Part shown: positions 26,247-27,784 of the stretch, one piece after another
Layout: each line of letters starts with the position of its first letter
How positions within the stretch are numbered: position 1 is the stretch's first letter
Origin: a virus
Reading direction: 5' to 3' (one strand)
Length of the DNA: 64,000 bases
Virus record (IMG/VR): IMGVR_UViG_3300042691_044733
Coordinates: 1-64,000 of that record
The notes under the pieces: model-generated
The model's input: only the letters and a program-made list of their open reading frames with translations
Databases searched by the model: none
Told to the model about the DNA's origin: nothing
Made by a program: the position numbers and the translations under genes

Positions 26247-26699
26247 GAAAGTTACTTCTTACCTTGGTTTTTTGGAAGTGAAATGACTAAGACAGATCAT
26301 TGGGAGAAAAGAAAGCAAAAAGGAATTTTGATTACTATTGGTGATGAACACTGTCACAAGAACATTACACCAAAAGATCTTATTAATATTTTTACTAGTT
26401 CTGAATCAGAACTTTTAAAATCAGAAGCCAGATCAATAAATGTAAGTGAAATCTACGAAAAGTGCTCTAAGAAATATGAAATTTTTCATTTAAATCTTTC
26501 CAGAGATAAAGATATTCGCGATTCTTGGAATAAACTGATTGGAGAAAGATCTCTTCTGATTGAAGAAAGTGAGATAACAGATAAAATTATTCAGGTGATT
26601 AAATCTGTTGTAAATCTTCCTACTTCTGATGTAAAAGATACTCCTTCTGTAGAGAAAAAAAACAATGATTCATTACCCGAAATTAAAATAACTTTATGA
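26247..26699 (+). CDS. vWA-domain protein, exon 2
   Basis: 150 codons after splicing. Begins ESYFLPWFFGSEMTKTDHWE and contains LITIGDEHCHKNIT, the second half of the vWA fold. The TTG at 26244 could look like a start but lies in the intron end. Overlaps the PurA-like gene by 4 nt (ATGA). Confidence 0.85.
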   Translation, partial: ESYFLPWFFGSEMTKTDHWEKRKQKGILITIGDEHCHKNITPKDLINIFTSSESELLKSEARSINVSEIYEKCSKKYEIFHLNLSRDKDIRDSWNKLIGERSLLIEESEITDKIIQVIKSVVNLPTSDVKDTPSVEKKNNDSLPEIKITL

Positions 26700-27784
26700 G
26701 AAAATTTGTAATTGATCTTGGATTTGGAGATTCTGGAAAAGGTATCACAACAGCAAGACTTGTTAAAGAGTTAAATGCTGATAATAAAACTTGGGTTGTT
26801 AAATTTAACGGAGGTGCCCAAGCAGGACATACTGTTATGATTAAAAAACCTGACGGTACTGAAATATCACATGTTTTTTCACAAGTTGGTAGTGGGACCT
26901 TTTTTGGTGCTAAAACTCTTGTAACTAGTGACTGTGCTATTTACATACCTTCTTTAGTTCGTGAATTTAAAATTCTCAAAGAGTTAGGTTATGTTCCTGA
27001 ATATGCAACAGAAAACAGAGTAATGCTTACTACTCCATTTGACATTGATTTTAACAGAAAAAATGCTAAAATGATTCAAAATGGTTCAGTAGGTATGGGC
27101 TTTGGTGCTACAGTACAGAGAACTCTTGATCATTATGGTATTTACATGACAGATCTCAATTGTCTTGAAGGACTTGATTATAAATTACGTAATATTGCAA
27201 AATATTACGGATTTACTGATGAAAAGTACATTGAGAAACAAATTGCTTATTTTATGGATTCTATAGATGAATTTGGTGAACTTGGAAATGTATCTTTAGA
27301 GTCTTTAGATCTGTTGATGGAAGATAAAGATTTAAATTTTGTATTTGAATCTTCTCAAGGAACAATGTTAGATCAACATTTTGGATTTTTTCCAAATGTA
27401 ACTCGTAGTAATACTACTTTACAAAATGTTGTAAAGTACATTAATGTAGATTCAGAAATTCATTTTGTTTCTAGAACATACACTACAAGACATGGAAATG
27501 GACCGTTGTTTGGAGAACATGAAGTTCCTATATTAAATCCATATGAAACAAATAAATCACATGATTTTCAGGGAGAGTTTAGAACTGCCCCACTAAAAGT
27601 GGATCAATTTACTTATGCTCTTGCTGTTAATTTGAGTTTCTTAAAATTTAAAATGGGAACAAATTTAAATCTTCATTTTACTTGTAGTGATATTGTTCCT
27701 AAATCAAAAATAAATCCTGTTCTATTAAATTTTATAGAAAGTGCTGGTGTGAACTGTAAATTTTACGATACACCATTTGTTTAA
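26696..27784 (+). CDS. Adenylosuccinate synthetase family enzyme (PurA/PurZ type)
   Basis: 362 residues, shorter than bacterial PurA (about 430) and close to phage and archaeal short forms. Motifs: GDSGKG (11-16; PurA has GDEGKG), GGAQAGHT (39-46), GSVGMGFGA (130-138), FESSQGTMLDQHFGFFP (217-233), SRTYTTRHGNGP (259-270), GEFRTAP and TCSD. PurA joins aspartate to IMP. Phage PurZ does the equivalent on dGMP for 2-aminoadenine DNA. The catalytic Asp is kept here, whereas PurZ of vibriophage phiVC8 has Ser there, so substrate choice is open. ATGA-coupled to the vWA gene. Confidence 0.88.
   Translation: MRKFVIDLGFGDSGKGITTARLVKELNADNKTWVVKFNGGAQAGHTVMIKKPDGTEISHVFSQVGSGTFFGAKTLVTSDCAIYIPSLVREFKILKELGYVPEYATENRVMLTTPFDIDFNRKNAKMIQNGSVGMGFGATVQRTLDHYGIYMTDLNCLEGLDYKLRNIAKYYGFTDEKYIEKQIAYFMDSIDEFGELGNVSLESLDLLMEDKDLNFVFESSQGTMLDQHFGFFPNVTRSNTTLQNVVKYINVDSEIHFVSRTYTTRHGNGPLFGEHEVPILNPYETNKSHDFQGEFRTAPLKVDQFTYALAVNLSFLKFKMGTNLNLHFTCSDIVPKSKINPVLLNFIESAGVNCKFYDTPFV

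What the first reader, a model, noticed from the sequence alone, without database searches (positions are those of the whole stretch)
26696..27784. Phage PurA/PurZ-type enzyme keeping the catalytic Asp
The short adenylosuccinate synthetase fold in a phage suggests 2-aminoadenine or related purine metabolism. The loop is GDSGKG: the Asp of PurA is kept, unlike the Ser of phiVC8 PurZ, while the neighbouring Glu is Ser. That is intermediate between PurA and PurZ. PurZ variants intermediate between archaeal PurA and phage PurZ are known (PurZ0). Coupled to a vWA gene rather than to a polymerase, it may have another substrate.
Basis: partly seen in the sequence, partly recalled or inferred. Interest (0 to 1): 0.75.

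Follow-up and report, generated by a model that had tools for sequence, protein, structure and literature searches.

The report
Phage copy of vWA-linked PurA-like ligase
The gene is real, but it is not a step towards the 2-aminoadenine enzyme PurZ: it belongs to a separate, apparently undescribed branch of adenylosuccinate synthetases, shared by phages and bacteria, nearly always next to a vWA protein and, in many bacteria, beside an ADP-ribose-sensing type of regulator, and its substrate pocket looks rebuilt for some other reaction.

Summary
The ORF, its GDSGKG loop and the vWA neighbour are confirmed. The "intermediate between PurA and PurZ" reading is not. The protein belongs to a family found in hundreds of viral contigs and in bacterial chromosomes and plasmids; bacteria that carry it also have a normal PurA. 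In 165 members the phosphoryl-transfer residues (PurA D13, K16, H41, Q224) never change. Most contacts for the IMP 5'-phosphate, ribose and aspartate do (N38 to Gln, T129 to Cys/Val, R143 never Arg, V273 always His, R305 to Gln); PurZ and PurZ0 keep most of these. A vWA gene lies beside it in 83 of 86 viral loci. All four Pseudomonadota loci from an even genome sample and two alphaproteobacterial plasmids have an NrtR-type (ADP-ribose-sensing) regulator alongside; a Rhodococcus plasmid has a weaker match. In Flavobacteriales it lies in NAD+/ADP-ribose gene clusters. Window plus PurZ/PurZ0 as one clade is rejected (p = 1.4e-6). Best reading: a GTP-dependent PurA-type ligase with another acceptor and/or amine, in an NAD+/ADP-ribose-linked accessory module that phages also carry. 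The reaction itself is not shown.

The parts
24339..24725 (+). Small protein (128 aa) with charged, probably coiled-coil sequence; first gene of the module
   Evidence: Homologues in 41 viral loci, mostly directly upstream of the vWA gene, and in 55 of 80 bacterial loci, 53 of them two genes before the PurA-like gene. No Pfam match. 'Coiled coil' is my reading of the sequence, not a tool result.
24729..25157 (+). vWA gene, 5' exon (holds the MIDAS motif DVTGS)
   Evidence: phrog_2971 5.4e-22; the model of a relative matches integrin beta-I (vWA) domains, Z about 16
25158..26246 (+). Insert of 1,089 nt in the vWA gene, probably a group I intron
   Evidence: Leaving it out gives a 294-aa protein collinear with relatives, 39-41% identity over 278-300 aa; 5' exon ends in T, insert ends in G, as in group I introns. 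No Rfam intron match, so the class is inferred.
25209..26018 (+). LAGLIDADG homing endonuclease ORF inside the insert
   Evidence: Pfam LAGLIDADG_3 8.3e-10; phrog_4645 4.2e-52
26247..26699 (+). vWA gene, 3' exon
   Evidence: phrog_2971 3.1e-7; collinear after joining; overlaps the start of the PurA-like gene by 4 nt
26696..27784 (+). PurA-like (Adenylsucc_synt) protein, 362 aa

Best explanation
The protein is a member of a distinct subfamily of the adenylosuccinate synthetase fold, which I call vWA-linked PurA-like. It works with the vWA protein encoded just upstream, in an accessory module that bacteria regulate through NrtR-type regulators and that phages also carry. Shown: family identity, conserved gene pairing, strictly conserved phosphoryl-transfer residues, and altered nucleotide- and aspartate-binding positions. 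Inferred: it uses GTP to phosphorylate the oxygen of a lactam (6-oxopurine-like) acceptor, as PurA does at IMP O6, and then lets an amine displace the phosphate; acceptor and/or amine differ from IMP and free aspartate. Inferred from gene context: the acceptor or product belongs to NAD+/ADP-ribose-related nucleotide metabolism (salvage, repair or a conflict signal). The vWA protein probably binds or presents a partner through its metal site. In the phage the module would help the phage cope with, or exploit, such host nucleotide chemistry.
For: Catalytic core kept in 165 of 165 members (D13, K16, H41, Q224), T239 in 162, guanine-recognising D333 in 157. Family-specific changes at IMP/Asp contacts: N38 to Q 162/165, T129 to C/V 162/165, R143 to non-Arg 165/165, V273 to H 165/165, R305 to Q 163/165, while housekeeping PurA keeps the originals and PurZ/PurZ0 keep N38, T129, R143, V273 and R305. 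These positions bind IMP in H. pylori PurA (D12, N37, T121, T230, V264, R294, R135'; PMC11571797). Nine of ten host genomes also carry a housekeeping PurA at E < 1e-160. The family is one clade at 100/100 on a stem of 2.0 changes per column. vWA neighbour in 83/86 viral and 74/79 bacterial loci. NrtR-type regulator next to the module in 4 of 4 newly sampled Pseudomonadota loci, in Allorhizobium and Acetobacter plasmids (Pfam NrtR_WHD 55-75 bits, cut-off 27), near it in Hahella and in 37 of 80 genome loci; weaker in Rhodococcus. NADAR, NAMPT, KptA, Macro, Sir2 and ADP-ribosylglycohydrolase genes nearby in Flavobacteriales, and NADAR or NAMPT beside some phage copies.
Against: No activity has been measured and no substrate identified. 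Residue correspondence at 20-24% identity is uncertain in the two loops that matter: the invariant Arg142 lies one helical turn from E. coli R143, and R/K296 could stand in for R305. The dense NAD+/ADP-ribose cluster is mostly one lineage (Flavobacteriales); many Bacteroidota and Desulfobacterota copies have no such neighbours, nor do 72 of 86 viral loci, the window included. Gene context does not prove a shared pathway.
Confidence: 0.58

Rival explanations
1. An ordinary adenylosuccinate synthetase carried as an auxiliary metabolic gene: it makes adenylosuccinate from IMP and aspartate to raise the AMP/ATP or dATP supply during infection.
For: Pfam Adenylsucc_synt over its cut-off; fold closest to E. 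coli PurA, Z 37.8; all catalytic residues kept.
Against: Fails NCBIfam PurA equivalog cut-offs (90 against 402 bits). N38, T129, R143, V273, R303 and R305 replaced. Nine of ten bacterial hosts have a normal PurA as well, so the paralogue is not needed for that. Constant pairing with vWA is not explained.
Confidence: 0.17
2. A pseudo-enzyme or regulatory protein: it binds GTP and a nucleotide as a sensor or scaffold for the vWA protein and catalyses nothing.
For: Altered substrate positions; vWA partner; sensor-type regulators nearby.
Against: D13, K16, H41 and Q224 are invariant in 165 diverse members, which is hard to explain without phosphoryl transfer.
Confidence: 0.13
3. PurZ/PurZ0-type enzyme making a 2-aminoadenine precursor from dGMP.
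For: PHROG 1211 lumps it with PurZ under the name '2-aminooxy adenylosuccinate synthetase'; a MazG/HisE-like pyrophosphohydrolase gene lies at 57403-57810.
Against: Asp kept where all phage PurZ/PurZ0 have Ser (PMC12884076); NCBIfam PurZ 42 against 300 bits; window + PurZ/PurZ0 clade rejected, p 1.4e-6; no DNA_pol_A, DatZ, DutZ or DpoZ match in the record. MazG-type enzymes are common in large phages (general knowledge). The whole family beside PurZ is not rejected (p 0.137).
Confidence: 0.03

Closest known systems
Housekeeping adenylosuccinate synthetase PurA (PF00709; TIGR00184, NF002223)
   Same: Fold over the whole length (Z 37.8), catalytic Asp, Lys, His and Gln, guanine-recognising Asp
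   Different: Below the equivalog cut-offs; nucleotide-phosphate, ribose and aspartate contacts replaced; shorter C-terminal part; coexists with a normal PurA; paired with vWA
PurZ (phiVC8, S-2L) and PurZ0 (Ghobes, Archimedes)
   Same: Phage-encoded, short PurA-like proteins, in one PHROG
   Different: PurZ/PurZ0 have Ser for Asp13 but keep N38, T129, R143, V273 and R305; they come with DNA polymerase I and nucleotide-pool genes; separate clade
NAD+/ADP-ribose conflict systems with Nudix regulators, ADP-ribosylglycohydrolase and vWA 'chaperones' (Iyer et al. 2022, PMC9503650, section 3.8)
   Same: Nudix-type regulator, vWA, NADAR, Macro and ADP-ribosylglycohydrolase in one neighbourhood
   Different: No PurA-like enzyme is mentioned in the main text; the vWA-PurA-like pair also stands alone, without a glycohydrolase
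R2K ATP-grasp ligases of phages (PMC4431377)
   Same: An R2K_2/R2K_3 gene follows the PurA-like gene in 19 viral loci
   Different: A neighbour, not a relative; absent from the window's module

Membership tests
Adenylosuccinate synthetase fold (PF00709) | Pfam score over the gathering cut-off and the same fold | tested here: met
   112 bits against 27; Z 37.8 to E. coli PurA
PurA (IMP + Asp + GTP) | NCBIfam PurA equivalog cut-off | tested here: not met
   90.5 against 402 bits (NF002223), 80.6 against 395 (TIGR00184)
PurA (IMP + Asp + GTP) | Catalytic Asp13, Lys16, His41, Gln224 | tested here: met
   All four kept in the window protein and in 165/165 members
PurA (IMP + Asp + GTP) | IMP contacts N38, T129, R143', V273 and aspartate loop T300-T301-R303-R305 | tested here: not met
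   Q42, V132, H146, H266 and K287-S288-D290-Q292 in the window protein; the loop alignment is uncertain
PurA (IMP + Asp + GTP) | Activity on IMP and aspartate | not testable with these tools
   needs an enzyme assay
PurZ / PurZ0 | Ser in place of the catalytic Asp | tested here: not met
   GDSGKG; Asp in 165/165
PurZ / PurZ0 | NCBIfam NF038379 cut-off | tested here: not met
   42.3 against 300 bits; controls phiVC8 397 and Ghobes 346 pass
PurZ / PurZ0 | Position in the PurZ/PurZ0 clade | tested here: not met
   Window + PurZ + PurZ0 rejected, p-AU 1.4e-6; whole family + PurZ not rejected, p 0.137
PurZ / PurZ0 | Companion genes: family A DNA polymerase (DpoZ), DatZ or DutZ/DmtZ | tested here: not met
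   No DNA_pol_A match, no DatZ, DpoZ, DutZ or DmtZ match better than E 0.01; the record may be incomplete
vWA domain (neighbour) | MIDAS motif and vWA fold | tested here: met
   DVTGS motif invariant or nearly so; model of a relative Z about 16 to integrin beta-I domains; no Pfam match
Group I intron (insert in the vWA gene) | Conserved group I core | tested here: inconclusive
   Exon-intron borders fit; no Rfam match

The most novel reading that the evidence does not exclude
A branch of the PurA fold that no longer makes adenylosuccinate: a GTP-dependent ligase joining an amine other than free aspartate (an amino acid, peptide or protein presented by the vWA partner) to a 6-oxo group in an NAD+- or ADP-ribose-type nucleotide, induced through an ADP-ribose-sensing regulator, used in stress or anti-phage defence and also carried by phages.
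Probability: 0.2. Interest if true: 0.88.

Novelty: new variant of a known kind. Interest (0 to 1): 0.62.

Why it matters
The PurA fold is known for two closely similar reactions, making adenylosuccinate (PurA) or its 2-amino-deoxy counterpart (PurZ). A widespread branch that keeps the phosphoryl-transfer machinery but replaces the substrate contacts, and that travels with a vWA protein and NrtR-type regulators, points to a reaction nobody has assigned. It also corrects an annotation: phages named '2-aminooxy adenylosuccinate synthetase' because of PHROG 1211 (189 mycobacteriophage records, Vibrio and Rhizobium phages) carry this branch, so the name is no evidence for 2-aminoadenine DNA. The association with NAD+/ADP-ribose genes gives a short list of substrates to test.

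Tried and rejected
Single-sequence search of viral contigs found no relatives; a profile of six phages found 462. PADLOC had no match for any module protein. Rfam gave no intron for the insert in the vWA gene. Literature searches for PurA with vWA, ATP-grasp or NADAR gave nothing on this module; only open-licence papers are held, so earlier mention elsewhere is not excluded. Considered and rejected: that E14S marks a transition to PurZ (only 5 of 165 have it); that the gene is a chance or decayed ORF (family-invariant residues intact, high-confidence model). Whether the whole family could be sister to PurZ is left open (p 0.137). Whether all phage copies form one clade was not finished; starred branches of the tree force at least three changes. 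Longest-ORF calling failed in two GC-rich loci; tblastn was used instead.

Full report
Observation. The reading frame is there exactly as described: 26696-27784 on the + strand, 362 aa, loop GDSGKG. Pfam gives Adenylsucc_synt at 3.7e-32, PHROG 1211 at 5.4e-44. The AlphaFold2 model (51-sequence alignment) has pLDDT 91.8 and pTM 0.91. VIA-align places it on E. coli PurA (Z 37.8, 2.5 A, 332 residues), then PurZ0 (7vf6, Z 32.3) and PurZ (7odx, Z 29.9). The window is part of a 126,979-base IMG/VR virus record with a single PF00709 match, 29.5% G+C.

Relatives and the conserved pair. Against cultured phages the protein matches only at about 25-33% identity: Vibrio phages Va1 and phiKT1024, a gut phage, Rhizobium phages and 189 mycobacteriophage records; no Z-genome phage is named among the rows listed. 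In Va1, phiKT1024, the gut phage, Rhizobium phage TM30 and mycobacteriophage Alice the gene just upstream, or two genes upstream in the last and in phiKT1024, is homologous to the window's vWA gene. A profile search of viral contigs found 462 relatives, of which 80 were kept. In 83 of 86 viral loci a vWA gene is present, immediately upstream in 60 and within three ORFs in the rest; two of the three exceptions begin at a contig end. A 120-aa protein (window 24339-24725) precedes the vWA gene in 41 loci, a J-domain/kinase-like protein lies upstream in 25, and an R2K ATP-grasp gene downstream in 19. Co-orientation and 4-nt overlaps suggest one transcript.

The same module in bacteria. Of 79 with a recognised frame, 74 have the vWA gene, 72 directly upstream, and 55 the small protein. 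Nine of ten such genomes carry a housekeeping PurA at E below 1e-160 besides this paralogue; the tenth is an incomplete single-cell or metagenome assembly. In an even sample the vWA family occurs in 6 of 198 Bacteroidota genomes and 5 of 299 Pseudomonadota genomes, the reference genome included in each count. So the module is patchy and accessory.

Regulator and neighbours. In 42 of 80 genome loci, 41 of them Flavobacteriales or unassigned flavobacteria-like and one Hahella, NAD+/ADP-ribose genes lie within 10 kb: KptA 38, NrtR 37, NADAR 33, ADP-ribosylglycohydrolase 33, Macro, Sir2, microbial PARG, NAMPT, PRPP synthetase. These loci share descent, so the counts are not independent. Independent support comes from elsewhere: all four new Pseudomonadota loci of the even sample have an NrtR-type protein divergently adjacent to vWA-PurA-like (NrtR_WHD 63-75 bits against 27); so do the Allorhizobium and Acetobacter plasmids (57 and 55 bits). 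A Rhodococcus plasmid has a Nudix/NrtR-like gene directly downstream that stays below the Pfam cut-offs. NrtR-related Nudix regulators sense ADP-ribose according to PMC9503650. Among viral loci 14 of 86 have such genes within 10 kb, for example NADAR directly after the PurA-like gene in two related contigs. The window itself has only a cREC gene about 3 kb upstream, a domain that PMC9503650 predicts to process ADP-ribose derivatives.

Active site. In 165 family members aligned with 12 housekeeping PurA sequences, three PurZ and three PurZ0, PurA residues D13, K16, H41 and Q224 are invariant, T239 is kept in 162 and D333 in 157. Replaced are N38 (Gln in 162), T129 (Cys or Val in 162), R143 (never Arg), V273 (His in all), R303 (mixed) and R305 (Gln in 163), and K331 (Cys in 155). 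In H. pylori PurA the IMP contacts are D12, N37, G119, T121, T230, V264, R294 and R135 of the other subunit (PMC11571797), which are E. coli D13, N38, G127, T129, T239, V273, R303 and R143. R303 touches both O2' and the aspartate (PMC8342488). PurZ and PurZ0 keep N38, T129, R143, V273 and R305 and lose D13. The family is therefore not on the way from PurA to PurZ; it changed other residues. Caution: identity is 20-24%, an invariant Arg142 lies one helical turn before R143, and R/K296 could replace R305. The inference is that GTP-dependent phosphorylation of a lactam oxygen is kept, while the rest of the acceptor and/or the amine differ.

Phylogeny. In a 52-row IQ-TREE analysis the family (20 phage, 13 bacterial rows) is one clade at 100/100 with a stem of 2.0; phage and bacterial rows are interleaved, with at least three changes forced by starred branches. 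The window's nearest rows by path are bacterial (Joostella, Xanthocytophaga). Its own branch is long (1.72) and its place inside the clade is unsure. Window + PurZ + PurZ0 as a clade is rejected (p 1.4e-6); the whole family + PurZ + PurZ0 is not (p 0.137). I therefore claim that the window protein lies outside PurZ/PurZ0, not that the family's deepest sister is settled. NCBIfam agrees: 90 of 402 bits for PurA, 42 of 300 for PurZ.

Mechanism proposed. GTP binds through the P-loop-like GDxGKG and the TCxD motif; Asp12 takes the acceptor's N-H proton; His45 and Gln221 stabilise the transferred phosphate (roles as known for PurA). An amine then displaces the phosphate. The vWA partner, whose relative's model resembles integrin beta-I domains with a metal site, may bind an acidic group of a partner protein or peptide. 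Steps after the first are inference. Context suggests NAD+/ADP-ribose chemistry; which molecule is unknown.

What is known. The Z-genome papers define PurZ and PurZ0 by the Ser substitution and companion genes (PMC12884076). PMC9503650 describes ADP-ribose conflict systems with Nudix regulators and vWA proteins but does not mention PurA. I found no open paper describing this module; the library is not complete.

Noticed in passing
window 30031-30652: TTACTTCTA occurs six times in about 570 bases (nine in the window, 1.8 expected, 0 of 100 shuffles as many), several times in the loop of a hairpin (z to -4.3). Two tRNA-like genes (30176-30287 and 30541-30651, over the Rfam cut-off, missed by ARAGORN) have inserts of roughly 40-50 nt in the anticodon arm that hold ACTTCTA too. 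Possibly interrupted or tRNA-mimicking RNAs; unexplained.
   Followed up: partly
window 25158-26246: Probable group I intron with a LAGLIDADG ORF inside the vWA gene; in mycobacteriophage Alice the vWA homologue gp247 has a long intein-like insert at another place.
   Followed up: partly
window 27967-30030: 687-aa protein of unknown function next to the module (phrog_33734); no Pfam or PDB sequence match. Its C-terminal part reminds me of TerD; not tested.
   Followed up: no
window 20862-21296: cREC_REC (cyclic-phosphate processing receiver) gene, 66 bits against 27.
   Followed up: no
window 57403-57810: MazG/HisE-like nucleotide pyrophosphohydrolase downstream of the DNA polymerase gene.
   Followed up: partly
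window 1-57810, exact genes not assigned: AAA_5 ATPases and a DUF2201 metallopeptidase-vWA protein, like the MoxR-vWA pair described for jumbo phages; several HNH/NUMOD homing endonucleases.
   Followed up: no
L098 (LR756503.1, 735-kb phage record): Carries a PurA that groups with housekeeping PurA, so a different case from the window.
   Followed up: partly
L201-L203 (plasmids): The NrtR / J-domain-like protein / vWA / PurA-like operon on plasmids of Allorhizobium, Acetobacter and Rhodococcus; in Allorhizobium it is followed by AAA, DUF5682 and DUF4132 genes.
   Followed up: partly
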